Shown here piece after piece: positions 6,720 through 48,669 of a stretch of DNA of 64,000 nucleotides (its first letter is position 1; each line of letters begins with the position of its first letter). The notes beneath the pieces are model-generated. The model was not told where the DNA came from, ran no database searches, and saw only the letters and a list, made by a program, of their open reading frames with translations. The translations under genes were made by a program, and so were the position numbers. This DNA is from CAVQYV01 sp963718295 [NCBI: uncultured Methylomirabilota bacterium] (lineage in GTDB: Bacteria > Methylomirabilota > Methylomirabilia > CAVQYV01), in NCBI GenBank assembly GCA_963718295.1, contig CAVQYV010000003.1, forward strand, positions 186,001 to 250,000, given 5' to 3'.

Positions 6720-8285
6720 TTATCTCCTTCTGGACCTTCCGGCCTTCAATCCCAGACTTGCCCCCCTCAAATAGAACGGGCCGGGAATAAATATCAGGGA
6801 AACCAACACGCAAGACCAAGCAAGGACATCTCCCATTCGGGCATAAGGCGTGATCCGGGGGGAAAGGGAGATGTCAGCCGTAAACCGATCCTCGCTGAAG
6901 AGACGGGAGGCCCTTACAATTTCTCCATAGGGAGAGATGACTCCGGAGATGCCCGTATTGGCAGCCCTCACCAAGTAGCAGCCGTTTTCCACCGCCCTCA
7001 CCACCGCCATGGAAAGGTGCTGATAAGGCGCTGCCGTCTCTCCGAACCAGGCATCGTTGGTGAGATTGACCAGGAAATCTGCCCCCCTCCTTCGATATTC
7101 CCTTGCGATCTCGGGAAAGATGGTCTCAAAGCAGATGGTGACGCCGAATCTGCCCTTTGGGACCTTAAGGATCTTCACCTCCTGACCTGCACTGAAATCT
7201 CCCACCCCCACTACCAGCTTGTCGACGAAGGGGAGGAACCTCCGCAGGGGCACGTATTCTCCAAAGGGGACCAGATGCATCTTATCATATTTTTCCACAA
7301 GACCCTTCTCCGGGGAGAGGAGGAAGGCACTATTGTAATAGCGAACGCTCTTCCCCTCCGCCGCGTAGTCGGGGCTTCCCACCAGAAGGTAGCAGCCGAT
7401 CTGGCGCGCCAGAGACTCCAACTCCTCCCTCCACCGGGGCTCTGTTCGAAGGTAGAATGCAAGTGCGGTCTCCGGCCAGATGATCATTTCGGGTCGAGCA
7501 CGGGCAGCCCCCAGGGTCAGCCTCTTGTGGACATCGAGGCTCGCCCGCTGAAAGGCAGGGTTCCACTTCAGGCTCTGATCGATATTCCCTTGAACCAAGC
7601 CCACCCTCATCGCCTCCCCTCCTAGAGGGCGATGGAGACGGAAGCTGCCATAGCCTAATGCCAGCACCACCGCAATCCCGACGCAGGAAAGGATTTTGAG
7701 CTTCAAAAGTGATCGAGGGGAATGTAAGAAGGCGAAGGCAAAGCCGGAATTGACCAATAGAACCAGAAAGGAAAGGCCATAGATGCCTCCCAAAGAAGCC
7801 AGTTGCAGGAAGTAGGCGTTCCGATACTGGGAATACCCCACCAGGTTCCAGGGAAACCCAGAGAGCAAGAAGTTGCGAAGGTACTCCAGGGAAACCCAAA
7901 GGGAGGGGAGCCAAAGGACCCCCCAGCCCCTGGACAGCAATTGGAAGCGGCAGCAGACCCAAGAAAAGACCCCAAAGTAGCAGGAGAGATAAAAGGAGAG
8001 GGCGATCAGGACCATCAGGCTCAGTGCCCGGGAAAGACCTCCGTAGAACGTCATGGCATGGGTAACCCAATAGAGGGAGCCGAGGTAGAAGCTCAGCCCG
8101 GCGATCAAACCATATAGGAAACCCCTCTTGGGGGGCGACTGCTCGAGTATCACCAGGAGGGGGACGAAGCTGATCCATGCCAGGGCTTCCAGGTCGGCTT
8201 TCGGGAAAGCGAGCCAGAGCAAGACCCCGCTGAGGAGAGATAGGAAGAAGGGAATGACTTTGGCTGGCCGAGTCATATCAGCCAA
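6720..8285 (-). CDS. lnt: Apolipoprotein N-acyltransferase
   Basis: Adds the third acyl chain to lipoproteins at the inner membrane. The 521 residues begin with about six hydrophobic segments (to residue 195), followed by a nitrilase-like domain. The catalytic triad is visible as Glu in IIWPETALAFY, Lys in EKYDKMHLVPFGEYVPL and Cys in VTICFETIFPEI. One more C-terminal membrane helix (DVLAWSCVLVSLIFIPG) follows. It overlaps cdsA by 8 bases. Function links to the nearby lolC/lolD genes, since Lol transport favours triacylated lipoproteins. Confidence 0.95.
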   Translation of the reverse strand: MADMTRPAKVIPFFLSLLSGVLLWLAFPKADLEALAWISFVPLLVILEQSPPKRGFLYGLIAGLSFYLGSLYWVTHAMTFYGGLSRALSLMVLIALSFYLSCYFGVFSWVCCRFQLLSRGWGVLWLPSLWVSLEYLRNFLLSGFPWNLVGYSQYRNAYFLQLASLGGIYGLSFLVLLVNSGFAFAFLHSPRSLLKLKILSCVGIAVVLALGYGSFRLHRPLGGEAMRVGLVQGNIDQSLKWNPAFQRASLDVHKRLTLGAARARPEMIIWPETALAFYLRTEPRWREELESLARQIGCYLLVGSPDYAAEGKSVRYYNSAFLLSPEKGLVEKYDKMHLVPFGEYVPLRRFLPFVDKLVVGVGDFSAGQEVKILKVPKGRFGVTICFETIFPEIAREYRRRGADFLVNLTNDAWFGETAAPYQHLSMAVVRAVENGCYLVRAANTGISGVISPYGEIVRASRLFSEDRFTADISLSPRITPYARMGDVLAWSCVLVSLIFIPGPFYLRGASLGLKAGRSRRR

Positions 8286-9087
8286 GGCAATGGGTCACAT
8301 AAAAGTAGAGAAAGGGACCCGTAAACAGAAGGCTATCCACCCGATCCAGCAAGCCACCATGTCCGGGAATCAGCGAGCCTGAGTCTTTGACGGCAATCGC
8401 CCGTTTCAGCAGGGATTCGGAGAGGTCTCCCAATTGCCCGGTGATGCCCAAAAGAACCCCCAGGGAGAGCGCGTGGAAAGCCCCCAGCTTGGGGAAAAAC
8501 CACCACTTGGCCAGAAAGGAAGCCGCTATACTGGTGACCAGACCGGCAATGCTTCCTTCGACCGATTTCCCGGGGCTCAGGCTCGGGCAGAGCTTACGCC
8601 GACCCAAATTGATCCCAAAGTAGAAGGCCCCAGCATCTGCCGCCCAGGTGACTACGAATAGGTAGAAAATGTAGGTGGCCCCCTCGGGCATCCTGCGCAG
8701 CAGGGGGAGGAAACTCATCAGAAGGGAGAAGTAGAGCACACCCAAAAGGGTCAACCCCGCGGCCTGGATTCTCAAACGGTATTCTGTGGAGCCGGAGAGG
8801 AGGGAAACCATGGAGGAGATGAAAAGCAAGGACAAAAATAACAGCAGGTTATCGGAGCTGGGATGAGCATAATAGATAAAGAAGGCGAAGGCCCCTCCCG
8901 CTACATAACCCAGGACCTTTAAGGGGCGGATCCCACTCCTCTCCAGGAGGGCGAAGAATTCATGAAGCCCAACGAGGATGGCCAAGGAAAGAATCAGAAA
9001 AAAGAGGTGAGGGGATCCGAATTTGACCAGGAGGAAAAAGAGGGGAATGAAGACGATCGTGCTCAATATTCTCTTAACATGCATCAT
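8278..9087 (-). CDS. cdsA: Phosphatidate cytidylyltransferase
   Basis: Makes CDP-diacylglycerol from phosphatidate and CTP in the inner membrane. The 269-residue protein has about seven membrane segments. It carries the CDS signature: WAADAGAFYFGINLGRRKL, then LSPGKSVEG, and the C-terminal GDLSESLLKRAIAVKDSG followed by IPGHGGLLDRVDSL. The start overlaps the end of uppS by 14 bases, the common uppS-cdsA pairing. Confidence 0.95.
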   Translation of the reverse strand: MMHVKRILSTIVFIPLFFLLVKFGSPHLFFLILSLAILVGLHEFFALLERSGIRPLKVLGYVAGGAFAFFIYYAHPSSDNLLLFLSLLFISSMVSLLSGSTEYRLRIQAAGLTLLGVLYFSLLMSFLPLLRRMPEGATYIFYLFVVTWAADAGAFYFGINLGRRKLCPSLSPGKSVEGSIAGLVTSIAASFLAKWWFFPKLGAFHALSLGVLLGITGQLGDLSESLLKRAIAVKDSGSLIPGHGGLLDRVDSLLFTGPFLYFYVTHCLG

Positions 9088-17741: not shown

Positions 17742-18530
17742 ATGGCAGATCTTGGAGTGTACAGAGAATATGGTGAAGAGCTGGAGCGGCGCTTGCGACT
17801 CAAAACCTTTCCCTTGGCATTCAAGCTGTTGAAAAGAGAGGAAGAGATCCCCGAAGGTGCGAAAAGACCGTTGAAGGACTGGGGCTACCACCTGTCCCTG
17901 TGCCAGACTCTCCAGATATCCCGTAGGGAAGGAAGGGTCATGGCCATGCTCTTGGAGGACCATTGGTGTTTCGAGCCGGTTGTGGGTTATGGGCTGGGAG
18001 AACCGCCGGAGCATTTCTTGGAGGGGCATAATCGCTATCCGAGGGACGTTGCAACTTTGGAGGCCGGCAGGCACTATGCAGAGCAATTTCCTCGTCTGGA
18101 AACCGGCAAATACATCGGGACTGTTTCTGGGCCACTCCGAACAGTCAATTTCGAACCCGATTTCGTCATGATCTATTGTGATTCAGCTCAACTATGCCTT
18201 CTGATGTTGGGCAGGGAGTATAAGGACGGATATAACCTGATGTGCGCGCTCTCCAGCCATGCGGCCTGCGTGTATGGCGTCATCCCCGTTGCCCAAACCG
18301 GCGAGTGCTATGTGGCTGTGCCCTGCCGAGGGGATCACTATCGGGCCATGGCGGGAGACGAAGAACTGATTTTTACGGCGCCGAGGGAGAAATTGGATGG
18401 CTTGCTGGAAGGGCTTCGGCACGTGGAAAAGACGGGTTCCAAGCTTCCTCAGGGATATGCGGTCCAGCCGGAGTATGCCTTGCCCGAGAGTTACAGGAAG
18501 ATCGGGCAGATGATGGGATACATCAAATGA
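17742..18530 (+). CDS. DUF169 family protein
   Basis: 262 residues, cytosolic, no membrane segment. The sequence (RLRLKTFPLAFKLLKREEEIPEGAKRP at the start, HLSLCQTLQISRREG, PDFVMIYCDSAQLCLLMLG, SSHAACVYGVIPVAQTGECYVAVPC) follows the DUF169 family, which has no established function. Several conserved cysteines hint at metal or redox chemistry, which is inference. AGGAGGT lies about 10 bases before the ATG. It is followed at 89 bases by the redox selenoprotein candidate, so the two may be co-transcribed. Confidence 0.85.
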   Translation: MADLGVYREYGEELERRLRLKTFPLAFKLLKREEEIPEGAKRPLKDWGYHLSLCQTLQISRREGRVMAMLLEDHWCFEPVVGYGLGEPPEHFLEGHNRYPRDVATLEAGRHYAEQFPRLETGKYIGTVSGPLRTVNFEPDFVMIYCDSAQLCLLMLGREYKDGYNLMCALSSHAACVYGVIPVAQTGECYVAVPCRGDHYRAMAGDEELIFTAPREKLDGLLEGLRHVEKTGSKLPQGYAVQPEYALPESYRKIGQMMGYIK

Positions 18531-18619
18531 GACCGGATCGTCCCTATCCATCATGCGTCTTTGGTGGGAGCTCAGCCAAAGGATAGAGGTACATGCAATT
18601 CATTGAGGAGAGCAGACCC

Positions 18620-19123
18620 ATGAGCAATCGAGACAGGCTGTTAGATGAGATTTTTGAGCTGGCCCTTCAAAATGATAGGGATTATTTCGGCTGAACCCAA
18701 GCCGTTCTTGCATCTCTGCAAGAAAAATTGGGTGTAGGAAGCAAAGAAGTGCTTAGGGCTGGAAGTGCTCTGGCCGGAGGTGTAGCCAGAAGAGGGGAGA
18801 CCTGCGGCGCCCTCACGGGCGCCCTTATGGCGGTTTCTTGCCTGATCGGACGGGAGCGGCTGGAAGACCGGAAACAATATGGAAAGGCATTGGAAGTGGC
18901 CGATCAGGTCTATGAGGAGTTTAGAGAGAAAATCGGCCACACCCTTTGCTGCGAGATCCATAAGATCCGCTATGGAAAGGTCTATCGCCTACATATCAAA
19001 GAAGAAAGAGAGGCCTTCCATGAAATGGGAGGGCACGGCGAGAAAGGATGCCCCGAGGTATGCGGGGTTGCCGCCAGGATCGCCGCTAATGTTATCCTGG
19101 AGCTTGGGCACAAACCTGCCTAA
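18620..19123 (+). CDS. C_GCAxxG_C_C family redox protein, probable selenoprotein (in-frame UGA)
   Basis: From ATG 18620 (GAGGAG 9 bases upstream) the frame reads MSNRDRLLDEIFELALQNDR then DYFG, UGA, TQAVLASLQEKLGVGS and on to 19123, 167 residues in all. In this family the first conserved Cys sits in a (C/S)-x-Q-A-V context at that very place, so UGA (18692-18694, codon 25) replaces it. The rest is intact: GETCGALTGALMA, LCCEIHK and GCPEVCGVAARIA. A two-part stem-loop directly follows the UGA. The family is thought to be redox-active with four conserved Cys. Selenocysteine insertion is inference; a nonsense mutation is the alternative, but the intact flanks and hairpin argue against it. Confidence 0.8.
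18692..18733 (+). promoter_or_regulatory. SECIS-like stem-loop at the in-frame UGA
   Basis: Right after UGA: ACCCAA pairs with TTGGGT (18695-18700 with 18728-18733) around an internal loop GCCG/AAA. Inside it TTCTTGCA pairs with TGCAAGAA (18705-18712 with 18717-18724) around loop TCTC. The apical loop starts 18 bases past the UGA, within the spacing known for bacterial SECIS. The loop lacks the G seen in the E. coli fdhF type, which is a mild point against. Confidence 0.7.
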
Positions 19124-23350: not shown

Positions 23351-24748
23351 TCAGGGAGTCTTCTCTCCCTCCGCGACCGCTTTGATCTTTTCGATCTCCT
23401 TGGTGATCAAGACTTCGGCCAAATCGGGAACCACTTCCCAGATAATCCTTTCCAGCCTGGGAATGAGGCGATCCGCCACCTCCTTCACGATACGATCAGC
23501 TATCGCCTCCATCTGTCCTTCAGAGAGAGCCGGTGGCATGGTCAAGGCATCTGCCACGCGGGACTCCACCACCCCCTTCGCCCCCGATATCTCCTCCTCG
23601 GCCAAGGCGGCTGCGGCTCCCGTCTCTTCGCCAAGTGCCGGTTCCTCCTGGCTCAAGGACACAGGAATCTCCTCTAACTCCTCGCTCATCGGCTCGCTAA
23701 CCGCTATTCCGAGGTTGTCGAAGGAGATGACCTCTTCTTCTAACCCTTCCTTCACTTCCCAAATGGCCGGCTCTTCCATTGGGGATTCAGCCATCGCTTC
23801 ACTGAGAAAGTCCTCCCCGGATATCTCCCCGGGAGCCTCGGGGGGACTCTCGACCATGACCCCCTGCGAATACAGCTCAAAGAAAGCCTCCGCGCTGTCC
23901 TCGGAAACAACCGCCGCCGCTGGCTCCTCTCCTGGCGAGAGAGGGCCCAATGGCGGGGCCTCGCCACTGCTCAGATCCAACATCTGCCAGAGTTCTTCCT
24001 CTGAGACCCCTATCTCGGAAACCCCTATTTCCGGCCTTTCCTCTACGATTTCTTCCTTCACTTTTTCTTCCCCAATGGGAGGAGCCGTCTCCGCTTCCGG
24101 GGCTTCATGCCACTCCGCCGCGGGAAGGATCCCTTTCTCCAGGCTCGGGGGGGGCATTTCCGGTGCCGTGAGCTCCGCAGCCGCCTGAGCCGCCGACCGG
24201 GGAGTGGGGACCGTCTGTCCTGCGCTCGGAGGAATGGGTGGCGCCACTTCCAGAGGAATCACCAGAGGAGGTTTCTCAACCCTGGGCGGTGGCTCCATCC
24301 TGGGAGGCTCGATCTTAGGCGGCTCCACTGGGGGCGTTTCCATTTTCGCCTCGATCTTCTCCGGAGCCAGCTTGGCGGTCCGAGTGAAGAGATGCTGCTT
24401 CACCTTCGCAATGAGCTGCTTCGATTCAAAGGGCTTGGTCACGAAATCGTTGGCTCCCGCCCGCAGGCCCCGCTCCTGGTCGAAGGCCTCGAAGGCTGCG
24501 ACCAGAAGGATAATCGGGACCTCCTTGAACTGGGGATCCCTGCGCAGAGATTCACACACTTCCAGGCCGTTCTTTTCCGGCATGAAGACATCCAACAGGA
24601 TGAGATCCGGCCTATTCTCCTTCGCCTTCGCGATCGCTTCGACCCCGTTAAGCGCCCTGACGATCTGAAAGTCCTCTTTGCTAAAGGTTAACTCCACCAC
24701 CTTTTGGATGGTGACGCTATCATCGGCAACCAAAATTCGAGGACTCAT
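23351..24748 (-). CDS. Response regulator with long Pro/Glu-rich linker and helical C-terminal segment
   Basis: 465 residues from ATG 24748, which has AAAGGAGG 5 bases upstream. Residues 1-125 are a receiver domain: ILVADDSVTIQKVVE with the acidic pair, phospho-acceptor Asp in LILLDVFMPEKNG and Lys in FVTKPFE. Residues of about 130-400 are disordered, rich in Pro, Glu and Ala. The last 60 residues form an amphipathic helix series (DRIVKEVADRLIPRLERI, then VVPDLAEVLITKEIEKIK) that resembles the C-terminus of PopZ/DUF2497 proteins. There is no output enzyme. It sits after two cheW genes, so a role in a chemosensory or motility pathway is likely. The receiver is certain, the rest inferred. Confidence 0.85.
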   Translation of the reverse strand: MSPRILVADDSVTIQKVVELTFSKEDFQIVRALNGVEAIAKAKENRPDLILLDVFMPEKNGLEVCESLRRDPQFKEVPIILLVAAFEAFDQERGLRAGANDFVTKPFESKQLIAKVKQHLFTRTAKLAPEKIEAKMETPPVEPPKIEPPRMEPPPRVEKPPLVIPLEVAPPIPPSAGQTVPTPRSAAQAAAELTAPEMPPPSLEKGILPAAEWHEAPEAETAPPIGEEKVKEEIVEERPEIGVSEIGVSEEELWQMLDLSSGEAPPLGPLSPGEEPAAAVVSEDSAEAFFELYSQGVMVESPPEAPGEISGEDFLSEAMAESPMEEPAIWEVKEGLEEEVISFDNLGIAVSEPMSEELEEIPVSLSQEEPALGEETGAAAALAEEEISGAKGVVESRVADALTMPPALSEGQMEAIADRIVKEVADRLIPRLERIIWEVVPDLAEVLITKEIEKIKAVAEGEKTP

Positions 24749-24804
24749 GATGGCCTCCTTTAATGCCAAACGTGTCCATCCTCCGGATGGTTGTAAAGAA
24801 GCCT

Positions 24805-25281
24805 CTACTGGCTCGTCGCAATCGGGAAGTCCTCCCCCGAGAGACCGCTGAGGCTATCAACATTGATCCACAGAAGGGGCTTTCCATTGAAATTGAATAC
24901 CCCCTTCAGATATTCCGACCTCACCCCCTGGACCTTGGGGGGAGGTTCGGTAACCTCTTCCAGATTCTGGGAAAGAATTCGCGTCACCGAATCCACTGAA
25001 AGGCCGCAGTGGCCGTCCCCCAACCTTACGATCAGTATCACCGGATTCGCGGTGACTTCAGACTCCTCCAACCCCAGCCACTTCCGCAGGCTGATCAGAG
25101 GGATATAATGGTTTCGGAATTCGATGACTCCCTCCGCGTGGAGAGGCTTCCTGGGGGGAATCGCCGGCTTCTCATAGTCGATGATCTGGACTACCAGGCC
25201 CAAATCAATCGCGAAGAAGCTCTGACCTGAAGTGAAAACCAACAGCTCGTGGCCGACCAAATCTGATAGCCCTGGGCTCAT
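24805..25281 (-). CDS. CheW-like chemotaxis adaptor
   Basis: 158 residues, a single CheW domain. LLVFTSGQSFFAIDLGLVVQIIDY at the start, HAEGVIEFRNHYIPLISLRKWLG in the middle and the C-terminal VFNFNGKPLLWINVDSL follow the CheW fold. It overlaps the upstream cheW gene by 4 bases. No CheA or receptor gene is nearby in the window. Confidence 0.85.
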   Translation of the reverse strand: MSPGLSDLVGHELLVFTSGQSFFAIDLGLVVQIIDYEKPAIPPRKPLHAEGVIEFRNHYIPLISLRKWLGLEESEVTANPVILIVRLGDGHCGLSVDSVTRILSQNLEEVTEPPPKVQGVRSEYLKGVFNFNGKPLLWINVDSLSGLSGEDFPIATSQ

Positions 25282-25775
25282 GGATGATCTTCAACTCTTT
25301 CCAAGAAGTGCCGGATCTCTGCCAATTGGAAGAGCCTATCCTCGTTCAGGCAGAAGACGGGCTTGTCCTCCACCTTGCATATCCCCCGAATATGCCTGGG
25401 GTCCAATGATGTCGCCATAGGCGGGAACGGCCTCAGATCAGATTCAGCAATATTCCAGACTCCCCTCACCTCGTCTACCAGGAGTCCGATTGATTCCCCT
25501 CCCAGCCGCAAGACCAGGACGGATTCAGGACCCTCAGGGATGCCTGGATACTCGAAGAAATCGGAGAGCTTTAATACCGGGATCCTCTTTCCTCTGAAAT
25601 CCAGTTCTGTACAAAAAGCAAAATCGGAAGTTGGAAGCGGCCGCATGCCCTCCGGGCTTACGATTTCCTGCAGCATCTCGATGCGGATGGCAAAGCCCTC
25701 TTGTCCCACCGAGAACAGCAGACATATGGGCCCGTCCTTGCCAGCTCCCTTGCTTCTTTGCGCTTCGGTCCTCAT
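25278..25775 (-). CDS. CheW-like chemotaxis adaptor
   Basis: Start MRTEAQRSKGAG at 25775 with GGAGG 5 bases upstream; 165 residues. The CheW landmarks are ICLLFSVGQEGFAIRIEMLQEIV, ELDFRGKRIPVLKLSDFF, IGLLVDEVRGVWNI and RGICKVEDKPVFCLNEDRL. First gene of the cheW-cheW-response regulator operon, which begins at a consensus promoter and ends at a strong terminator. Two adjacent, diverged CheW proteins may link different receptors to one kinase. Confidence 0.88.
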   Translation of the reverse strand: MRTEAQRSKGAGKDGPICLLFSVGQEGFAIRIEMLQEIVSPEGMRPLPTSDFAFCTELDFRGKRIPVLKLSDFFEYPGIPEGPESVLVLRLGGESIGLLVDEVRGVWNIAESDLRPFPPMATSLDPRHIRGICKVEDKPVFCLNEDRLFQLAEIRHFLERVEDHP

Positions 25776-29584: not shown

Positions 29585-30058
29585 ATGAGTAATGGCGTGG
29601 AGTCCGTTCTGAAGAAGCACCCGCGAGCTGGCCGCGACGCGCTGATTCCCATCCTGCAGGAGGTCCAGGAGGAACAGGGTTATCTTTCGCGTGACGCGGT
29701 GGCCGATATCAGCCGACATCTCAACCTTCCCGCCACCAAGCTCTACGGTGTTGCGACCTTTTACAACCAGTTCCGCTTCCACCCCAAGGGGAAGTACCAC
29801 TTCATGGTGTGCCGGGGCACGGCCTGTCACGTGAAGGGATCGAGCAGGGCGCTCGAAATGGCTCAGAAGATCCTTCGGCTGAAGCCGGGACAGACCTCCC
29901 GGGATCGCCTGTTCAGCCTCGAAGTCGTCGCCTGCATGGGAGCCTGCGGCCTATCCCCGGTGGTCAACGTGAACGGGGAGTTCTATGCGAAGGTTACCCC
30001 TCAGAAACTCGCCAAGATCATCCGCGAATGTAAGGAGAAGGAGAATCCAAGTGTTTAG
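29585..30058 (+). CDS. hydC: NuoE-like [2Fe-2S] subunit of NAD(P)-linked [FeFe]-hydrogenase (HydC type)
   Basis: 157 residues, thioredoxin-like ferredoxin fold. An N-terminal helical part with LQEVQEEQGYLSRDAV leads to YGVATFYNQFRF. The four cluster ligands lie in CRGTACHVKG (two) and VACMGACGLSPVV (two). GAGGAG lies 8 bases before the ATG. The downstream fusion subunit begins within its last codons (8-base overlap), so the two are translationally coupled. In trimeric hydrogenases this subunit passes electrons between the NuoF-like and catalytic subunits. Confidence 0.93.
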   Translation: MSNGVESVLKKHPRAGRDALIPILQEVQEEQGYLSRDAVADISRHLNLPATKLYGVATFYNQFRFHPKGKYHFMVCRGTACHVKGSSRALEMAQKILRLKPGQTSRDRLFSLEVVACMGACGLSPVVNVNGEFYAKVTPQKLAKIIRECKEKENPSV

Positions 30059-33000
30059 CCAATCCAGAACATCCGAGATGAACGCCGCCGGCAGGTGCTG
30101 GGTCGGTTTCAGCGGGCCCTCCGATGACCTATTGGCCGAGCTGGCGACCGGTCCGTTCGCCAGTATACGGGCTGCCGGCCCGGAGGCATTGGGCTCCTTT
30201 CTCGCCGGTCTGCGCCGGGAAACCGTGACCGGGCCCGCCATCTTTATCGGGGCCGGCACCTGCGGAATGGGCGCCGGAGCGGGTAAGACCTTGGTCGCAA
30301 TCCGCGAATTCCTGGACCGCAACCAAATCGAGGCCGATATCATCGAGGTGGGCTGCAACGGGATGTGCTCCGACGAGCCGATCATGGATATCCAGCTTCC
30401 GGGGAAGGCCCGGCTGAGTTTCGGCAATGTAACGTCAGAAAACGCTCCTCGCCTCCTGGACGATGTGCTCCGGCACGAGAGCGTCCCGGCAGACTGGGTG
30501 CTGGGCCAGTATCGGAGCCCATCCGCACTCCCGTGGGAGGATGTCCCCTTTCTGGACGAGCACCCATTTCTGTCGCGGCAGGTCCGCGTCGTCCTCGCTT
30601 CGAGCGGCATTATCGATCCGGGAAGCATCGCGGAGTACATTGCCCGCGGGGGTTACTCGGCGGCGGCGAAGGCACTTCGCAGACTGACGCCCGAGGAGGT
30701 ATGCAACCTGGTTGAGGCCAGCGGCCTGCGGGGGCGCGGCGGAGGCGGATTCCCGACCGGCAAGAAATGGAAATTCGCGCAAGCCGCCGAAGCCGATCAG
30801 AAATACCTCATCTGCAATGCCGACGAGGGTGACCCGGGCGCGTTCATGGATCGCGCTGTGTGCGAGAGCGATCCGCACCGCCTGCTGGAAGGAATGCTGA
30901 TCGCGGCCTACGCTATCGGCGCGACCAAGGCCTACATCTACATCCGCGCCGAGTATCCGTTGGCGATCAGACGGCTGACCGAAGCCATTCAGCAGGCACG
31001 CGAATACGGCCTGATCGGTCACAACATCCTCAACAGCGGTGTCAACCTGGAGGTACATCTCAAAATGGGCGCCGGCGCTTTCGTCTGCGGCGAGGAGACT
31101 GCGCTGATCCATTCCATCGAAGGCAAGCGGGGCATGCCTCGGCCCCGGCCTCCATTCCCGGCGGTCACGGGCCTGTTCGGCAAGCCGACCGTCATCAACA
31201 ACGTCGAAACCCTCGCCAACCTTCCTCTCATCCTCGACCGCGGTGCAAAGTGGTATTCCGCGATGGGAACGCAGGGGAGCAAGGGGACAAAGGTCTTCGC
31301 CCTCTCCGGCATGGTGCGCCGGACGGGGCTGGTGGAAATCCCCATGGGAACAAGCCTCCGGGAGGTGGTCTTCGACATCGGCGGAGGCGTCCCCAACAAC
31401 AAGCACTGCAAGGCCGTGCAGATCGGCGGTCCCTCCGGCGGCTGCGTGCCTGAGGCCGCACTTGGACATCGCTACCGATTACGAGGCCCTGAAAAAGTTC
31501 GGCACCATCATGGGCTCGGGCGGACTGGTGGTCGTGGATGAATCTACCTGCATGGTGGATTTCGCCAAGTATTTCATGGAGTTCATCCAGAGCGAGAGTT
31601 GCGGGAAGTGCATTCCCTGCCGGGAAGGCACACGCCGCATGCTCGAGATCCTCGAGGCAATCACCCGTCCCAGGCACAAGGAGGAGGATCTGGACGCCCT
31701 TCTGCGCGTCCAAGGGATCATGCATCTCAAGAGATTGGGCGAGATCATCAAGGCGACGAGCCTGTGCGGTCTCGGCCAGACGGCAGCCAACCCCGTGCTG
31801 AGCACGCTGGAATGGTTCCGGGACGAGTACGAAGCCCACCTCTTCGAACGCCGATGCCCCGCGGGCTCCTGTAAGGAGTTGGTGGGTGCCCCCTGCCAGA
31901 ATGGCTGTCCGGCGGGAACCGAGGTTTGGCGTTACGTGGCGCACATCGCCCGCGGCGATTACGCGGAGGCGTACCGCGTGATCCGGGAGGCGAATCCCTT
32001 CCCTTCCGCATGTGCTCGTGTCTGCGACCATCCCTGCGAGACGTCATGCCGCGCGGGCGCAACGGGAGGCGAGCCCATTGCCATCCGGATCCTGAAGAGG
32101 TTCGTGGTGGACCGCATGGATCCGGCCGAAGGCCAGCCCGCACCGCTCCGCCGTCCGGACGGGGCCCGGATCGCCGTGATCGGGGCCGGTCCCGCCGGTT
32201 TGACCGCCGCCAATGCGCTCTCCCTGTTGGGCCACCACGTCACCCTTTTCGAGCGCGAGGATCGGTCTGGCGGAATGCTCACCGGCGCCATCCCCGAATA
32301 CCGCCTTCCGCGGGAAGTCCTCAACAAGGAGATCGCAGCGCTCTTGAACGACCACATCCAGGTGCTCTATGGGCAGGCCTTGGGCCGAGACTTTACGATC
32401 GATCAGCTCCTCCGTGACGGCTACCGGGCAGTGTTCATCGCCACCGGCTGCCATCGAAGCAAGAGGCTGGGGCTGCCGGGCGAGGAGGTTGCCGGGATTC
32501 TGCCGGGAATCCAGTTCCTGAAGGCGTACAACCTCCAGGACCAGGCGCTGGCACGCGGGCGCGTCGGAATCATCGGCGGTGGGAACTCGGCCATGGACGC
32601 GGCCCGCGCCGCGATTCGCCAAGTTGGCGTGGAAAGCGTCACCGTGTACTACCGTCGCACGCGACAAGAAATGCCCGCTTACGCCCATGAAATCGCGACC
32701 GCGCTGGAAGAAGGAGTGGTGATCGAGGAGCTGGTGGCGCCGGTGGCCGTTCACAGTCAGGATGGGCACCTGACCGGGATGCGCCTTATCCGGAACCGGC
32801 TCGGAGATCGGGACGCCTCGGGCCGCCAGAAACCCGAACCGATCGAGGGATCTGATTTCGACGTGAACCTGGACACGCTGATCGTAGCGATCAGCGAGGA
32901 TCCCGACACTGAGGGGTTCGACGGCATCGGCCGCACCTCATGGGGTACGATTTCCGTCAACCCCGAGTCCCTGACCACGAGCCGACCGGGGGTATTCGCC

Positions 33001-33339
33001 GGCGGCGATGTGGTCAGCGGCCCCAACACCGTGATCAATGCCATTGCCGCGGGCAAGCAGGCGGCCGTGATGATCGATCGCTATGTCACCGGCAAGGTGA
33101 TGAAAGTCCTTCCCAAGGTGAAGCTTCCCTCGGTCTACGTAGAGGCGATCCCATCGGAAGAGGAGGAAAGCGGAGAGGCCGTCCGGATCGAGCCGCCCAT
33201 GATCCCGATAGCAGAGCGCAGAGGGTGCTTTGCCGAGGTGGAGTTGTGTCCCTCCGAGGAGGCCGCGCTGGCCGAGGCGCGGCGTTGCCTGCGCTGTGAC
33301 CTGGACTTCACGCAGCCACTCGTTTCTTCCCGGAGTTGA
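30051..33339 (+). CDS. hydB: NuoF-like hydrogenase subunit fused to GltD-like flavoprotein (single-base frameshift)
   Basis: Starts at GTG 30051 with AAGGAG 7 bases upstream. Residues of about 20-130 are a [2Fe-2S] domain ([21 protein letters not shown]). The NuoF core has the NADH and FMN loops [16 protein letters not shown] and [14 protein letters not shown] and the [4Fe-4S] set [11 protein letters not shown]. From about residue 600 a GltD/NfnB-like part begins, with CQNGCP and [13 protein letters not shown] cluster ligands, FAD site [16 protein letters not shown](P) site [13 protein letters not shown] and [11 protein letters not shown]. The frame breaks near 31452-31461: removing one base from GGCCGCAC gives [18 protein letters not shown]. 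Repaired length is about 1095 residues. It should carry NADH and perhaps NADPH chemistry for the hydrogenase. Confidence 0.9.
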
Positions 33340-35763: not shown

Positions 35764-37761
35764 ATGCAACCAGTCTGCTTCGTACAAACCATAAAGGAAC
35801 GCTGCCGGGTCTGCTACACGTGCGTGCGCGAGTGCCCGGCCAAAGCAATCGGGATCTCGGAAGGACAGGCCAGGATCATTTCCGAGCGCTGCATCGGTTG
35901 CGGCAACTGTGTGCGCGTCTGCAGCCAGGGTGCCAAACAGGTCCTCGACGGAACGCAGGAAGTAGCGAGCCTGCTCCAGGGGGAAGGCAAGGTTGCCGCC
36001 CTGCTGGCGCCTAGCTTCCCGGCCGAGTTCGAGGAGTTCGAGTACGAAAAGGTGGTTGGTCTTCTTCGGGCGCTGGGTTTTGACTACGTCCACGAGGTAG
36101 GATTTGCCGCTGACCTTGTGGCAAGCCGGTACCGCCAACTGCTGACCTCCGACCGGAGCAGTCGCTTCATCGCCACGACCTGTCCCGCCCTCGTGGGTTA
36201 CGTGGAACGCTACTACCCAGAGCTGGTGCCTCTCCTGGCACCGATCGCCTCACCCATGGTGGCCGCCGTTCGAATCATCCATCACCTGTACGGGCCGGAC
36301 GTGCGCACGGTGTTCATCGGGCCTTGCATCGCCAAGAAGGCCGAGGCGGCGGGCGATGAATTAGAGGGGCAGATCGGCGCGGTATTGACCTTTGCGGAAC
36401 TGCGCCACATGCTGGCGGAATCCGGCATCCGGCCGGAGACAGTGGAGCCCAGCGACTTCGATCCCCCGTGGACCGGTCCGGGAGGGCTCTTCCCGATCAG
36501 CCGGGGTCTGCTCCAGGCTGCCGAAATCGAAGAAGACCTGATGGACAGCGAGGTCGTGGCCACGGACGGCCGCACCAATTTTGTCGAGGCGATCCAGGCC
36601 GTCGCCTCCAATAGCCTGGACATGCGCCTGCTCGAAGTCCTCTGCTGCAACGGCTGCATCATGGGAGCGGGGATGACCACAAGCAGTCCGCTCTTCCGGC
36701 GCCGCAGCCTCGTCGGACGCTACGTACGGAAGCTCTGGACCAACTCCCGCATGGACCATTGGAGGAAGGAAGTCGCGCGGTTCTCCGAAGTGGATCTGGC
36801 GCGCCAGTTCCGGACCTATGACCAGCGCTTCCCCCAGCCGTCCCGCGAGGAGGTATCGACCATTCTGGCGCGGATCGGAAAGCTAAAGCCCGAGGACGAG
36901 CTGAACTGCGGGGCGTGCGGCTACGATTCCTGCATCCAGCACGCAGTCGCGATTCACCATCGGCTGGCGGAAACGGAAATGTGCCTGCCCTATACCATCG
37001 AGAAGCTGCACAAGACGGTGAAGGAGCTTGCCGTATCCAACGACCAGCTGATCAGCACCCAGGAAGCCCTCATGCACTCGGAGCGGCTCGCGAGCATGGG
37101 CCAGCTGGCCGCCGGCGTGGCCCATGAGGTCAATAACCCCCTCGGCGTCGTCCTGATGTACGCCCACATGCTCCTTGAACAGACGGACAAGTATCCAAAC
37201 CTGCGCGAAGACCTCAGCATGATCGCGGAACAGGCCGACCGCTGCAAGAGGATCGTGGTCCGACTGCTGCATTTCGCCAGACAGAACAAGGTGATCCTGC
37301 GCACGGTCGACATCTGCAAGCTAATCCAGCGGGCTGCCAGGGCCTACCCCTTCCCTCAGGAGATCCAGTTGCAGATGGCGCCCAAGATCGCGCTTCCGAG
37401 AGTCGATCTGGACCCGGACCAGATCAACCAGGTCCTGACGAATCTTTTCAGCAATGCTTGCGATGCAATGGCGGACGGTGGTATCCTCACCATCGGCATC
37501 GACGGCAACGATAGCAGGGTCTGGTTTTCGGTCACTGACACCGGAAGCGGAATACCCAGGGAGAACCTGAGCAAGATCTTCGAACCGTTCTTCACGACCA
37601 AGCAGATCGGCAAAGGAACCGGGCTGGGCCTCGCCGTCACGTATGGCATCGTCAAAATGCACCGGGGGGACATCGAGGTAACCTCCAACAGTGATCCGCT
37701 TGCAGGCCCGACGGGTACCACTTTCACGGTCAGGCTCCCGCGGAAGGGCCCTGAGGAATAA
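35764..37761 (+). CDS. H-cluster-domain histidine kinase, probable H2 sensor
   Basis: 665 residues. Two [4Fe-4S] sets come first (CRVCYTCVRECP, CIGCGNCVRVC). A hydrogenase large-subunit-like domain follows, with all four H-cluster cysteines kept but in changed motifs: TTCPALVGY, GPCIAKKAE and VLCCNGCIMGAG. A [4Fe-4S] set NCGACGYDSC (about 381-390) and a helical linker lead to a kinase core: His in AAGVAHEVNNPLG (about residue 454), N-box NLFSNACDAM, and DTGSGIP and GTGLGLAV. The loss of TSC.P.W and of the GGGQP end is typical of sensory rather than catalytic domains. No membrane helix, so it reads cytosolic H2 or redox state. Partner receivers flank it. Confidence 0.92.
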   Translation: MQPVCFVQTIKERCRVCYTCVRECPAKAIGISEGQARIISERCIGCGNCVRVCSQGAKQVLDGTQEVASLLQGEGKVAALLAPSFPAEFEEFEYEKVVGLLRALGFDYVHEVGFAADLVASRYRQLLTSDRSSRFIATTCPALVGYVERYYPELVPLLAPIASPMVAAVRIIHHLYGPDVRTVFIGPCIAKKAEAAGDELEGQIGAVLTFAELRHMLAESGIRPETVEPSDFDPPWTGPGGLFPISRGLLQAAEIEEDLMDSEVVATDGRTNFVEAIQAVASNSLDMRLLEVLCCNGCIMGAGMTTSSPLFRRRSLVGRYVRKLWTNSRMDHWRKEVARFSEVDLARQFRTYDQRFPQPSREEVSTILARIGKLKPEDELNCGACGYDSCIQHAVAIHHRLAETEMCLPYTIEKLHKTVKELAVSNDQLISTQEALMHSERLASMGQLAAGVAHEVNNPLGVVLMYAHMLLEQTDKYPNLREDLSMIAEQADRCKRIVVRLLHFARQNKVILRTVDICKLIQRAARAYPFPQEIQLQMAPKIALPRVDLDPDQINQVLTNLFSNACDAMADGGILTIGIDGNDSRVWFSVTDTGSGIPRENLSKIFEPFFTTKQIGKGTGLGLAVTYGIVKMHRGDIEVTSNSDPLAGPTGTTFTVRLPRKGPEE

Positions 37762-38211
37762 ACATAATGATGCAGGCTGTAGCCGGCAGCCGAAGCCAAT
37801 CCTTCGACTTCGAAAAGGAGAATGCCATGGCAAACATATTGCTGGTGGACGACGACGAGGACCTGATCGAAATGAACAAAACCACGCTGACGCAGCGCGG
37901 TCATACGGTGCGGGTCGCCTATTCCGCAGCGGAGGCCCTGCAGCTCTTCCAGGCCAATCGGCCCGACGCGGCGGTGGTGGACGTCATGATGGAGAAAGTA
38001 TCAGCCGGGTTCGATCTCGCCCGTCACCTGCACGCCCAGATGCCCGAGCTGCCGATGATCATTCTGACCGGAATCCGGAAGGAAATGCAGTTCCTCGCCG
38101 AGCCCGACGAAACATGGCTGCCGGTCACCAAGGTCCTGGAGAAGCCCGTGAATCCGCGCGTGCTTGCCGACGAGGTAGAGAAGCTGCTCGCAGCAAAGAA
38201 ACATACCGCAG
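37716..38211 (+). repeat. Tandem duplication, copy 1 (610-bp period)
   Basis: The kinase 3' end, the gap and the receiver gene recur 610 bases later (38326-38817). From about 37745 to 37990 the copies are almost identical, including silent sites; after that they diverge and differ by a small indel. Confidence 0.9.
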
Positions 38212-38234
38212 GGGGCGGAGCGAGCACTTCGTAA
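37827..38234 (+). CDS. Single-domain response regulator (duplicate 1)
   Basis: 135 residues from ATG 37827, with AAAAGGAG 7 bases upstream. ANILLVDDDEDLIEMNKTTL, the Asp in AAVVDVMMEKVSAGFD and the Lys in KVLEKPVNPR are the receiver residues. The stretch between Thr (ILTGIRKEM) and Lys carries an insertion FLAEPDETWLPVT, also seen in the other small receivers here. The C-terminal tail HTAGGGASTS is unlike its twin and runs into the scar of the duplication. Confidence 0.9.
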   Translation: MANILLVDDDEDLIEMNKTTLTQRGHTVRVAYSAAEALQLFQANRPDAAVVDVMMEKVSAGFDLARHLHAQMPELPMIILTGIRKEMQFLAEPDETWLPVTKVLEKPVNPRVLADEVEKLLAAKKHTAGGGASTS

Positions 38235-38325
38235 CTTCGGGGTGCGCTTTCCCGACATCCATGGAAAGGTTCGCTTCGCAATCAACGGCGGGCCAAGCCC
38301 AAGTGAGCTGCGAACGCTCTCCGAA
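38235..38325 (+). pseudogene. Duplication scar: fragment of the receiver-kinase 5' end
   Basis: Between the two receivers, GTAACTTCGGGGTGCGCTTT and the next 40 bases resemble 38928-38985, the start of the receiver-kinase gene (FSLHLPDINGEVRFAIS). Directly after it the kinase tail TTFTVRLSRKGPEE reappears. The duplicated unit thus spanned a kinase 3' end, a receiver and the next gene's 5' end. Confidence 0.75.
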
Positions 38326-38817
38326 TACCACTTTCACGGTCAGGCTATCTCGGAAGGGCCCTGAGGAATAAACATAATGATGCAGGCTGTAGCCGGCAGC
38401 CGAAGCCAATCCTTCGACTTCGAAAAGGAGAATGCCATGGCAAACATATTGCTGGTGGACGACGACGAGGACCTGATCGAAATGAACAAAACCACGCTGA
38501 CGCAGCGCGGTCATACGGTGCGGGTCGCCTATTCCGCAGCGGAGGCCCTGCAGCTCTTCCAGGCCAATCGGCCCGACGCGGCGGTGGTCGACGTCATGAT
38601 GGAAATACAGTCAGCCGGCTTCGATCTGGCCCGTCACCTGCACGCCCAGATGCCGGAGCTCCCAATGATCATCCTCACGGGCATCCGGAAGGAAATGCGG
38701 CTTCCCTTCAAGTACGAGCCCGACGAGACATGGCTGCCGGTCACCAAGGTCCTGGAGAAGCCCGTGAATCCGCGCGTGCTTGCTGACGAGGTAGAGAAGC
38801 TGCTCACAGCAAAGAAG
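38326..38817 (+). repeat. Tandem duplication, copy 2
   Basis: See copy 1 at 37716. This copy keeps the short kinase 3' tail, now non-functional, ahead of the second receiver. Confidence 0.9.
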
Positions 38818-40017: not shown

Positions 40018-41124
40018 ATGAACCGGAGCGAGATACAATCCTGGCTGCTGGAAACCAGGCCCGAGCGCCTGGAGGAACTCTGGCGCCTCGCCGACGCGAC
40101 GCGCTTGGAGAATGTCGGGGCGGAGGTCCACCTTCGCGGACTGATCGAGATCTCCAACTTTTGCGTGCGTCAATGCGGATACTGCGGCCTGAGGGCAGGC
40201 CACCGGGACCTTACCCGGTACCGAATGTCGGAGGCGGAGATCATGGGGTGTGTCCGCCAGGCCGTAGACTATGGCTATGGCACCGTGGTGCTGCAATCGG
40301 GCGAGGATCACGGTATCAAGGGCGCATGGATGGCCGACCTCGTTCGCCGGATCAAGGTCGAAACGCCGTTGGCGGTGACGCTGAGCCTCGGCGAACGTTC
40401 TGACAGCGATCTGGTTGCATGGCGCGAGGCTGGGGCGGATCGATACCTGCTGAGGTTTGAAACATCAGACCCGCAGCTCTATGAGAAGATCCACCCTTCG
40501 TTGCCGGGCAAGCCTTCGGACCGGATCGCCATTCTCCGCCGCCTGGCAGAGCTCGGCTATGAGGTGGGCAGCGGGGTGATGATCGGGATCCCGGGGCAGA
40601 CCTATGAAAGCCTCGCCCAAGACATCTCATGGTTTGAAAGGCTCGATCTGGATATGATCGGGGTGGGTCCTTTCATCCCCCATCCCCGAACCCCGCTGGG
40701 AGAGGCTGCGACGAACCTCGACGCACCGCCGGATCAACAGGTTCCCAATTCCGAGCTGATGACCTACAAGGTCGTGTCCCTGGCAAGGTTGGTCTGTCCG
40801 AGGGCGAATATCCCCAGCACGACGGCCCTGGCGACTTTGAACCGGGCGGAAGGCCGGGAGTTTGGCCTCTTGCGGGGGGCGAATGTGGTCATGCCCAACC
40901 TGACTCCACCTCAGTACCGGGCGAGCTACGAGATTTACCCGGCGAAGGCCTGCATTTTCGAGACGGCCGCCGACTGCGATGTCTGTATGAAGCGCCGGAT
41001 CATCTCCATAGGAAGAGTGATAGGCACCGGGCGGGGAGATTCTCACAATCTCAGCCGGCGCCTGAGCAATACCGAGCGGAAACGGGAGGATGCGCCGTGT
41101 GCGCCTTGCCAGCACTCGAGATGA
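40018..41124 (+). CDS. hydE: [FeFe]-hydrogenase maturase HydE (radical SAM)
   Basis: 368 residues. The radical SAM cluster ligands lie in ISNFCVRQCGYCGLRAGH, a CxxxCxxC set. LRFETSDPQLYEKIHPSLPGK, GVMIGIPGQTYESLA and VGPFIPHPRTPLG follow HydE. HydE acts in building the azadithiolate-bearing diiron part of the H-cluster from the HydG product. It begins 6 bases after the hybrid kinase stop and overlaps hydG by 28 bases. Confidence 0.95.
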   Translation: MNRSEIQSWLLETRPERLEELWRLADATRLENVGAEVHLRGLIEISNFCVRQCGYCGLRAGHRDLTRYRMSEAEIMGCVRQAVDYGYGTVVLQSGEDHGIKGAWMADLVRRIKVETPLAVTLSLGERSDSDLVAWREAGADRYLLRFETSDPQLYEKIHPSLPGKPSDRIAILRRLAELGYEVGSGVMIGIPGQTYESLAQDISWFERLDLDMIGVGPFIPHPRTPLGEAATNLDAPPDQQVPNSELMTYKVVSLARLVCPRANIPSTTALATLNRAEGREFGLLRGANVVMPNLTPPQYRASYEIYPAKACIFETAADCDVCMKRRIISIGRVIGTGRGDSHNLSRRLSNTERKREDAPCAPCQHSR

Positions 41125-42522
41125 GTCGAGAGGCGACTGACTTCATAGACGATGAGTATCTGACGGAGTTGATGGCGACCTGCCGGCCCGACGCTGCCCG
41201 CGTTCGCGAGATCATCGCCAAGAGCCTGGCGAAAGAGGCGCTCAGCGTGGAGGAAACGGCCGCGCTCCTGACCATCCAAGAGCCGGAGGTGGTGGAGGAG
41301 GCTTTTGAGGCCGCCCGCCAGCTCAAGCGAGACGTCTATGGAAACCGGATCGTCCTTTTCGCTCCGCTCTACATCGGAAACCACTGCCTCAACGACTGTG
41401 CCTATTGCGGCTTCCGGTGCTCGAACTTGGAGGCTGTCCGCCGCACACTCTCGGAGGTGGAAATTCGCGAATCAGGTGGAGGCTCTGGAGAAAAAGGGCC
41501 ACAAGCGACTCATCCTCGTCTTCGGCGAGCATCCGGATTACGACGCCCATTTCATTGCCCGCTGTGCCCGGATCGTGTACCAGACCAAGGTTGGCCGGGG
41601 TGAGATCCGACGGGTCAACATCAATGCCGCCCCCCTGGATCATGAAGGCTATCGGGTGGTGAAGGAAGCGGGAATTGGCACCTATCAGATCTTCCAGGAA
41701 ACCTATCACCACCAGACCTACTCCCGGATGCATCCACCCCATACGCGCAAGGGGAATTACCTCTGGCGCCTGGACGGTCTGAGCCGTGCCCTGGAGGCCG
41801 GCTGCGACGATGTGGGGATCGGCGTGCTGTTCGGGCTTTCCGACTGGCGCTTCGAGGTCTTGGGGTTGGTGGCCCACGCCATCCACCTGCGCTCTCGCTA
41901 TGGCGTGGGCCCGCACACGATTAGCTTCCCCCGTCTGCGACCGGCCTGCGGCGCAAACCTCACCGGGTCAGTGACGGTCAGCGACGATGAATTCAGGCGC
42001 GTGATTGCAACCCTGCGCCTCGCTGTGCCCTACACCGGGCTCATTCTCACGGCGCGCGAAAACGCACAGCTGCGCCGCGAGCTCATGGGATTCGGCGTGT
42101 CCCAGATCGATGCGGGCAGCCGCATCGAGATCGGAGGATATACCGAGGCCGGCGACGCACAGGTCATGGAGCGCGAGCAGTTCGAGCTGGGGGACATCCG
42201 GCCGCTGGATGTGGTCATGCGGGAGCTCATGCAGGACGGATATCTGCCGAGCTTTTGCACCGCATGTTACCGGCTGGGACGGACCGGGGAGCACTTCATG
42301 GAATTTGCCATCCCCGGCTTCATCAAGCGCTTCTGCACGCCAAACGCCATGACCACTCTCATGGAATACCTCGTGGATTACACATCCCCGGAAACACGCC
42401 GCATCGGCCAGGACCTGATTGCGAAGGAGTTGACGGCCATCGAGGACGGGCCTCTGAAGGCGAAGCTGATCGAGAGGCTTGCGCAGATCGAGGCCACCGA
42501 GAAGCGGGACCTCTATTTCTAA
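41097..42522 (+). CDS. hydG: [FeFe]-hydrogenase maturase HydG (single-base frameshift)
   Basis: Radical SAM tyrosine lyase that makes CO and cyanide as an Fe(CO)2CN synthon. GTG 41097 has GGGAGGA 8 bases upstream. The first frame holds APLYIGNHCLNDCAYCGFRCSN, the SAM cluster, then ends in nonsense after about 41470. The other frame resumes with QVEALEKKGHKRLILVFGEHP and runs to the C-terminal cluster ligands in SFCTACYRLGRTGEHFM. Removing one base near 41469-41476 (ATTCGCGAATCAGG) rejoins EVEIR-NQVEAL. Repaired length is 474 residues, normal for HydG. As given, the gene is broken between the two halves of the barrel. Confidence 0.92.
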
Positions 42523-46673: not shown

Positions 46674-47616
46674 ATGATCACCCTCGAAGATGTGCAGCAA
46701 GCGGCAGAGCGCATCGCTCCCTATGTTCGACGGACACCGCTGGTGGCCGCCCGCTGTCTGAAGGATAATCCGTTTCCGGACGGAGAGCTGCTCCTCAAGC
46801 TCGAGTGTCTTCAGGTAACCGGCTCGTTCAAGGCGCGCGGCGCTGCGAACAAGCTCGTGTCCCTCTCCGATGCAAAGGTCCGGCGGGGAATCGTGACGGC
46901 CTCCGGAGGGAACCATGGCCTTGCCGTCGCCTACGCCGGCTGGCTAGGTAAGACCCGGACTACGGTGTTCCTGCCGGACAATGCTTCGCCGGAAAAGGTG
47001 AAAAAGCTCCAACACTGGGGGGCCACGGTGCGGTTCGAGGGCCACCAGTGGCACGAAGCCAATCGGGCGGCCCTGGCCATGGCGGAGCAGGAGGGAATCA
47101 CCTATTTCCATCCGTTTGCCGACCCCCTGGTCATCGCCGGGCAAGGGACGACGGCCCTGGAAATCCTGGAGCAGGCCCCGGAGGTGGAGGAGATCCTGGT
47201 GGCCATTGGTGGGGGTGGATTGATCAGCGGGATCAGCTTGGCGGCGAAAGCCCTTCGCCCCTCGATTCGCATCATAGGCATCGAGCCGACGGGCTCGCCG
47301 ACGTTGTACGAGAGCCTCAAGGCCGGGCGGGTGGTCGCATTGCCGGAAATCACCACCAGAGTCCCAACCATGGCATGCCGCCAGACCGAGCCCATCAACT
47401 TCGAGATCGTGCAGCGATACGTGGACGAGATTATGCTCGTCACCGATGAGGACATGGCTGATGCGGCCCGCTGGCTGTGGTTCGAGATGGGGCTGGCCGA
47501 CGGATTTGAGCGGCGCGGCAACCATCGCCGCCCTGCGCAGCGGCAAGGTACGCCCCAAGAAAGGCAACAAGGTGTGCGCCCTGGTCTGCGGCGCCGGTCC
47601 GGACGGGATCGCCTGA
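46674..47616 (+). CDS. Threonine/serine dehydratase, PLP-dependent (single-base frameshift)
   Basis: Fold-type II PLP enzyme that deaminates threonine or serine. The PLP lysine lies in VTGSFKARGAANKL, then TASGGNHGLAVAYAG, the phosphate-binding AIGGGGLISGISLAAKA and GIEPTGSPTLYESLKAG. The frame breaks near 47500-47510. One base fewer gives LSGAATIAALRSGKV and the end CALVCGAGPDGIA, with a stop at 47614-47616. Repaired length is 313 residues, without the ACT domain of biosynthetic IlvA, so a catabolic type or serine racemase-like enzyme is likely. Confidence 0.85.
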
Positions 47617-47650
47617 CGGAGGTGTGAGGCCCAAACATGGGGGGATGTCA

Positions 47651-48665: not shown

Positions 48666-48669
48666 GTCT

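What the first reader, a model, noticed from the sequence alone, without database searches (positions are those of the whole stretch)
18620..19123. C_GCAxxG_C_C redox protein with UGA at the first conserved cysteine: probable selenoprotein
The frame is open on both sides of TGA 18692-18694, and the TGA stands where the family has its first conserved Cys (YFG-U-TQAVL). A stem-loop of two perfect helices begins on the very next base, with the loop 18 bases from the UGA. A start codon with a good SD lies 24 codons upstream. Standard gene callers would start the gene at an internal codon and lose the reactive residue.
Basis: partly seen in the sequence, partly recalled or inferred. Interest (0 to 1): 0.85.

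Follow-up and report, generated by a model that had tools for sequence, protein, structure and literature searches.

The report
Selenocysteine form of C_GCAxxG_C_C redox protein
A small bacterial redox protein carries selenocysteine, read from an internal stop codon, at the first of its four conserved cysteines; it is a new member of an already listed selenoprotein family, and its nearest known structure, an iron-carrying cytochrome, suggests a metal-binding role that can be tested.

Summary
Observation confirmed. Frame 18620-19123 (+) is one PF09719 protein interrupted only by TGA 18692-18694, at the family's first conserved Cys. The seven closest relatives found (six genomes, 52-72% identity) all have TGA at this codon. 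Among family rows fetched, 43 have TGA and 30 Cys there, none another residue. The nine codons after the UGA are the gene's most synonymously conserved stretch and form a hairpin. All six genomes have selA and selB, five a clear tRNA-Sec. The window's own genome is not held, so its sel genes are untested.

Against: the window's hairpin loop, UCUC, lacks the guanosine that the bacterial SECIS model requires and all seven relatives keep.

The family is already listed as selenoprotein (TIGR01909; PMC9312934; PMC13188914): a new member of a known kind. Newer leads: the predicted fold's one outstanding PDB match is split-Soret cytochrome c, 'a novel iron centre' (1h21, Z 14.0), whose relatives' four invariant non-haem Cys align one to one with Sec25/C62/C110/C144; and three split-Soret relatives carry UGA at that first Cys, for which the held literature gave no report. 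Sec may thus ligate an iron(-sulfur) centre: inferred, not shown.

The parts
18605..18610 (+). Shine-Dalgarno-like GAGGAG
   Evidence: sequence, nine bases before ATG; purine-rich stretches also lie before the starts of the relatives, by eye
18620..19123 (+). CDS of a 167-aa C_GCAxxG_C_C family selenoprotein, UGA read as Sec at codon 25
18692..18694 (+). Sec UGA codon (U25)
18695..18733 (+). SECIS-like region; its lower helix 18695-18700/18728-18733 is perfect in the window but only 54% of cells pair across 8 copies
18705..18724 (+). apical hairpin, 8 bp, paired in 8 of 8 copies; loop 18713-18716 UCUC has no G in positions 1-2
18803..18805 (+). codon of conserved Cys62 (the GCAxxG Cys)
   Evidence: invariant in the 32 rows of alignment A1
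18947..18949 (+). codon of conserved Cys110
   Evidence: invariant in the 32 rows of alignment A1
19049..19051 (+). codon of conserved Cys144
   Evidence: invariant in the 32 rows of alignment A1
17742..18530 (+). upstream neighbour, DUF169 protein (PF02596, 2.9e-39), ends in TGA; no DUF169 among the 7 neighbour proteins of relatives that were scanned, so probably not a functional partner

Best explanation
The gene encodes a 167-residue, all-helical C_GCAxxG_C_C protein in which UGA at codon 25 is decoded as selenocysteine by SelB and tRNA-Sec, directed by the hairpin just downstream. Sec25, Cys62, Cys110 and Cys144 are the conserved set and probably form one site. Shown: family, frame, UGA/Cys alternation, synonymous conservation of the hairpin, sel machinery in relatives, predicted fold. 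Inferred: Sec insertion in this organism, and the role of the site. The best guess for the role is an electron-transfer or redox site that binds an iron(-sulfur) centre as in split-Soret cytochrome c, with Sec replacing one Cys ligand (about 0.45); a plain selenol/thiol redox site is about as likely.
For: TGA at the same codon in 7 of 7 closest relatives. Of 46 TGA-bearing family matches examined (all 45 listed in the capped table and one), 43 have TGA at this column; the other 3 have Cys there and TGA elsewhere; 30 Cys rows in all, no other residue. Codons 26-34 are the most synonymously conserved of 151 nine-codon windows: 151 of 208 same-residue pairs use the same codon (0.73) against 1088 of 2613 (0.42) for the gene. 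39 of 43 UGA copies (window not included) meet all four constraints of the published bacterial SECIS model, 4 of 30 Cys copies do, Fisher p 1.2e-11, ignoring kinship. selB and selA over cut-off in 20 of 20 family-bearing genomes, against 2 and 1 of 14 control genomes; tRNA-Sec at 69 bits or more in 17 of 20. The window lies in an all-Sec clade of 8 (SH-aLRT 94), next to an all-Cys clade of 21. Model pLDDT 96.2; one PDB chain stands out: 1h21, Z 14.0, 140 residues, 3.2 A, next Z 4.0. hhalign to 16 split-Soret proteins: probability 92, E 6.5e-7, four Cys matched one to one.
Against: The window's apical loop UCUC has no G in its first two positions; no suboptimal fold within 5 kcal/mol gives one, while 7 of 7 relatives keep it. 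The window's own sel genes cannot be checked. In the 7 relatives, 14 to 103 of 300 codon shuffles fold as well. No compensatory pair changes in the apical hairpin: 5 of 8 pairs never vary, 3 vary on one side, and the shuffle control is not exceeded (201 of 500 at least as high on percentage paired). The tRNA-Sec cut-off is lax: 5 of 14 control genomes pass it, and G314 passes only at 47.0 bits; G183, which has a close relative, has none above it. Relatives in genomes without sel genes were not looked for. For the iron centre: no Foldseek match at E <= 0.001, 1h21 is at 0.014; the tool notes that mostly helical models without a clear match reached a typical best Z of 14 against 48,161 chains. 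No paper passage that I read measured iron or Sec in a C_GCAxxG_C_C protein.
Confidence: 0.85

Rival explanations
1. The gene is a true selenoprotein by descent, but this copy no longer inserts Sec efficiently: the loop G has changed to U, so UGA now mostly terminates and the gene is decaying.
For: UCUC loop only in the window; 7 of 7 relatives have G in loop position 1 or 2; no alternative fold with G within 5 kcal/mol.
Against: The other 142 codons are intact, with 72% identity to the closest relatives and all four Cys sites kept; the hairpin is very stable (-20.9 kcal/mol); the 2026 review says that putative SECIS elements of a subset of genes fall outside the model (PMC13188914, passages read).
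Confidence: 0.08
2. The TGA is a sequencing or assembly error of a Cys codon (TGC/TGT), or the copy is a pseudogene.
For: Other genes in the window look split between frames (e.g. 41097-41603 and 41305-42522, by eye), so the record may hold errors.
Against: TGA at the same codon in 7 of 7 relatives from 6 genomes, with conserved synonymous sites after it.
Confidence: 0.02
3. Translation starts inside (TTG 18728), giving a 131-aa protein without the first Cys; the upstream frame is chance.
For: This is what ORF listing returns.
Against: The upstream 24 codons are conserved in residues across 8 copies, with starts 24-25 codons upstream; C/U25 is invariant in A1.
Confidence: 0.02
4. Sec is inserted, but the site is a plain selenol/thiol redox centre (selenenyl-sulfide with Cys62, 110 or 144), not a metal site.
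For: Most prokaryotic selenoprotein families are thought to take part in redox reactions (PMC9312934, start of abstract).
Against: The predicted fold and the four-Cys layout match split-Soret cytochrome c, titled as carrying a novel iron centre; the +3 Cys is not conserved, the four others are.
Confidence: 0.45

Closest known systems
C-GCAxxG-C-C family (seleno)protein (TIGR01909 / PF09719)
   Same: Scores above both cut-offs (60.2 vs 47.4; 78.6 vs 27 bits); same Cys/Sec alternation at the first Cys; listed as selenoprotein forms 1 and 2 in PMC13188914 (passages) and as one family in PMC9312934 (passage).
   Different: Belongs to an 8-member all-Sec clade beside an all-Cys clade; has a further Cys at 148, shared by its 7 closest relatives; its SECIS loop lacks the usual G. 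The Sec position of the published forms was not given in the passages that I saw.
Split-Soret cytochrome c (1h21; NF047622)
   Same: Same predicted fold (Z 14.0, 140 residues) and four conserved Cys in the same order; three relatives even have UGA at the first of these.
   Different: No CxxCH haem motif in the window protein; 14.2 bits vs cut-off 400; 19% identity to 1h21.
DVU_1555 family C-GCAxxG-C-C protein (NF045669) and HUGP/GUXX-star fusion selenoprotein (NF045501)
   Same: Share the domain (42.5 and 33.6 bits).
   Different: Far below their cut-offs (103 and 325).

Membership tests
PF09719 / TIGR01909 C_GCAxxG_C_C | profile score above the curated cut-off | tested here: met
   78.6 vs 27 bits; 60.2 vs 47.4 bits
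PF09719 / TIGR01909 C_GCAxxG_C_C | four conserved Cys (first may be Sec) | tested here: met
   columns 25, 62, 110, 144 invariant in 32 of 32 rows chosen for A1, counting U as C; the rows fetched later were checked at column 25 only
Bacterial selenoprotein | in-frame UGA aligned with Cys or Sec in homologues | tested here: met
   43 UGA and 30 Cys rows, no other residue
Bacterial selenoprotein | selA, selB, selC, selD in the same genome | not testable with these tools
   no genome held; genomes of the closest relatives: selA 6/6, selB 6/6, tRNA-Sec 5/6; selD not searched there
Bacterial selenoprotein | Sec detected in the protein | not testable with these tools
   needs mass spectrometry
bSECIS consensus model (PMC13188914, Fig. 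2 legend) | 3-9 nt loop, 4-16 bp upper stem | tested here: met
   4 nt, 8 bp
bSECIS consensus model (PMC13188914, Fig. 2 legend) | G in one of the first two loop positions | tested here: not met
   loop UCUC, no alternative within 5 kcal/mol; met in 7 of 7 closest relatives
bSECIS consensus model (PMC13188914, Fig. 2 legend) | 16-37 nt between UGA and loop | tested here: met
   18 nt
bSECIS consensus model (PMC13188914, Fig. 2 legend) | free energy at or below -7.5 kcal/mol | tested here: met
   -20.9, -18.3 for the 48 nt after the UGA
Split-Soret cytochrome c | profile score above NF047622 cut-off | tested here: not met
   14.2 vs 400 bits
Split-Soret cytochrome c | CxxCH haem-binding motifs | tested here: not met
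   none in the translation
Split-Soret cytochrome c | fold and four non-haem Cys | tested here: met
   with the caveats given there (Foldseek E 0.014; helical models can score high Z)
DVU_1555 family (NF045669) | score above cut-off | tested here: not met
   42.5 vs 103
HUGP/GUXX-star fusion selenoprotein (NF045501) | score above cut-off | tested here: not met
   33.6 vs 325

The most novel reading that the evidence does not exclude
C_GCAxxG_C_C proteins and split-Soret cytochromes share one four-Cys iron(-sulfur) site, and in both families one and the same ligand position alternates between Cys and Sec. The window protein would then be an electron carrier with a naturally Sec-ligated iron-sulfur centre, and UGA-bearing split-Soret relatives (L185, L186, L212) would be an unlisted family of Sec-containing haem proteins.
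Probability: 0.3. Interest if true: 0.75.

Novelty: new member of a known kind. Interest (0 to 1): 0.5.

Why it matters
It settles that this gene, cut short by ordinary ORF calling, is by descent a selenoprotein of a widespread but little characterised family: among the matches fetched, nearly all from one phylum, 43 distinct copies carry UGA at the same column. The fold match gives that family a testable biochemical idea, an iron(-sulfur) site with selenium as ligand. The single copy with a loop that breaks the SECIS rule is a natural test of how strict SelB recognition is.

Tried and rejected
Direct pattern search for relatives of P0001 gave no relative in genome contigs or viral contigs. 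Plasmid search gave 3 distant matches; the Ilyobacter one is a Cys form, the other two were not translated. Sequence search of the PDB with P0001 alone: no match at E <= 1; with the family profile: 1h21 at E 0.032 only, with two likely chance matches. Gene neighbourhood: of 7 neighbour proteins scanned from 6 of the 7 relatives' loci, no family is shared by all; L115 and L117 (L117 by eye only) share a URO-D and a GntR gene. Other UGA-interrupted genes in the window: 52 mechanical candidates, the finding among them; I judged none of the other 51 convincing, by eye only. Pair covariation: too little variation to support or refute. More close relatives in the class of G214 (8 genomes) and order of G388 (17 genomes): no new genome. 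A model of the UGA-bearing split-Soret relative L185 reached pLDDT 77.4 and was not searched. Geometry of the four Cys in the model could not be measured: no coordinates are laid in the Python box. Papers: the hyphenated name C-GCAxxG-C-C is in 3 held papers; split-Soret with selenocysteine in 0; the 2007 Olavius paper is not held.

Full report
WHAT IS THERE. The + strand frame from ATG 18620 to TAA 19121-19123 is open except for TGA 18692-18694, codon 25. Read with that codon as a residue it gives 167 aa that match PF09719 (5.3e-22) and TIGR01909, which NCBI already names 'C-GCAxxG-C-C family (seleno)protein'. Ordinary ORF listing returns only TTG 18728-19123 in this frame.

IS THE TGA A CODON? 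A search of 395 genomes of one phylum found 142 with a family match at 1e-6. The seven closest matches (six genomes; 52-72% identity) all carry one TGA, and it is at the same codon in all seven, with an open frame and a start 24 or 25 codons upstream. I then fetched every TGA-bearing match listed (45), one more, and part of the TGA-free ones. Of these 46, 43 have TGA at the column of residue 25; L143, L164 and L168 have Cys there and TGA elsewhere (in L143 and L168 at or after the end of the domain, in L164 inside it). In all, 74 distinct rows: 43 TGA, 30 Cys, 1 fragment without the column. The table was cut ('more matches are not listed'), and the Cys rows are only those fetched, so the ratio is not a frequency.

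THE HAIRPIN. In eight copies the codons after the UGA are unusually fixed: GTT CTT in 8 of 8, GCA in 7 of 8. Among 151 nine-codon windows, codons 26-34 rank first (151 of 208 same-residue pairs have the same codon, 0.73; whole gene 1088 of 2613, 0.42). This stretch holds most of the apical hairpin, which is paired in 8 of 8 copies. The window's fold beats codon shuffles (3 of 300 as stable); those of the seven relatives do so weakly or not at all (14, 16, 32, 39, 55, 93 and 103 of 300). Against the four constraints given in PMC13188914 (passages read), 39 of 43 UGA copies pass all and 4 of 30 Cys copies do; mean folding z is -1.93 and -0.36. These tests treat related rows as independent.

THE ODD LOOP. 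The window itself is not among the 43 and fails one constraint: its loop is UCUC, where relatives have GCUC, GCCC, GCUU or AGUU, and no fold within 5 kcal/mol brings a G into the loop's start. It may be a sequencing error, a SelB with other needs, or the start of decay. I take it as lowering, not overturning, the claim of efficient Sec insertion here.

MACHINERY. No genome is held for the window. In 20 genomes that carry family members, selB and selA pass cut-off in 20 of 20; among the tool's 14 control genomes they do so in 2 and 1. tRNA-Sec passes in 18 of 20, but 5 of 14 controls pass too; 17 of the 20 score 69 bits or more, G314 just 47.0, G183 and G076 fall below. Of the six genomes with the closest relatives only G183 lacks a clear one. 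UGA ends 18 of 32 genes that I chose by eye in the window, so the code is standard.

HISTORY. A quick tree of 74 rows (the window and 73 others) puts the window in an all-Sec clade of 8 (SH-aLRT 94) beside an all-Cys clade of 21. On this tree Sec and Cys change places 6 times (shuffled labels: 23.6 on average); the well-supported branches alone force only 3, and the program warns of long branches that meet elsewhere in the tree. 19 of 30 Cys copies have a second Cys three residues on (CxxC); 0 of 43 Sec copies do.

FOLD AND ROLE. AlphaFold2 gives a confident all-helical model (pLDDT 96.2, pTM 0.91). Foldseek finds no PDB match at E <= 0.001; [quoted passage not shown]). VIA-align gives it Z 14.0 over 140 residues at 3.2 A, the next chain 4.0. 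The tool notes that mostly helical models without a clear match reach a typical best Z of 14 against a far larger set, so the gap to the next chain and the profile comparison matter more: hhalign of the family with 16 split-Soret proteins gives probability 92, E 6.5e-7 and sets all four conserved Cys against the four invariant non-haem Cys. From memory, the 2003 paper reported an EPR-visible iron-sulfur centre in that cytochrome; I saw only its title. One proteomics paper lists a Desulfovibrio member as putative FeS cluster-binding (PMC8322314, one passage), and one member is acetone-induced in Desulfococcus biacutus (PMC4103992, passages). So the site may bind iron, with Sec as one ligand; a plain selenol/thiol site is not excluded.

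SEC IN SPLIT-SORET RELATIVES. Searching split-Soret proteins turned up three with UGA at the first conserved Cys: L185 (G161) and L186 (G149), aligned in A2, and L212 (G384), placed by eye. They are the only TGA-bearing matches in the table (49 of 395 genomes matched). The hairpins are unimpressive: L185 has loop GGUC 20 nt after the UGA, z -0.8; L186 shares the GGGGGTCCTCAGCC stretch, its best fold has loop GGGG at 17 nt, z -1.4; L212 has a weak hairpin with loop GGUUGA. All three genomes have selB over cut-off; tRNA-Sec is clear (71 and 72 bits) in G161 and G149, not tested in G384. The word 'split' does not occur in the held text of the 2026 inventory and no held paper has both split-Soret and selenocysteine.

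VERDICT. A real selenoprotein gene by descent, correctly read by the first stage, new member of a known family. The surprising part lies beside it: a shared Sec/Cys position in two families with one fold, one of them known for an iron centre.

Noticed in passing
L185 (TGA at 628), L186 (TGA at 589), L212 (TGA at 645): Three split-Soret cytochrome c relatives with UGA at the first conserved non-haem Cys: candidate Sec-containing haem proteins, for which the held literature gave no report.
   Followed up: partly
G064:C36, G246:C262, G149:C1: A second tRNA-Sec hit lies within about 100 bases of a second selB hit in three genomes (G064 25300-25389 by 23373-25256; G246 8304-8391 by 7138-8205; G149 1453893-1453980 by 1451941-1453836): possible duplicate selB-selC modules.
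   Followed up: no
L112 (G030), complement of 1507-1932: A Cys copy that branches with three UGA copies keeps a strong hairpin after the Cys codon (z -3.4, loop AUUU without G): looks like a relic SECIS after Sec-to-Cys change.
   Followed up: partly
L164: Family copy with Cys at column 25 and a TGA 17 residues after it, inside the domain: another Sec position, an error or a broken gene.
   Followed up: no
L134 1438-1950: In Ilyobacter polytropus a Cys-form C-GCAxxG-C-C gene stands directly upstream of selA.
   Followed up: no
window 41097-42522; 29985-33339; 46674-47627; 48454-49098: Several genes look split between frames or cut short (radical-SAM hydrogenase-maturation-like, NADH-hydrogenase-like, threonine-dehydratase-like, alcohol-dehydrogenase-like; names are my reading, from no search): real decay or sequence errors.
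   Followed up: no
window about 37700-38650: Two minus-strand frames (TGA at 38001 and at 38611) run into nearly the same 40 residues, so a stretch of about 600 bases around the response-regulator-like gene seems duplicated.
   Followed up: no
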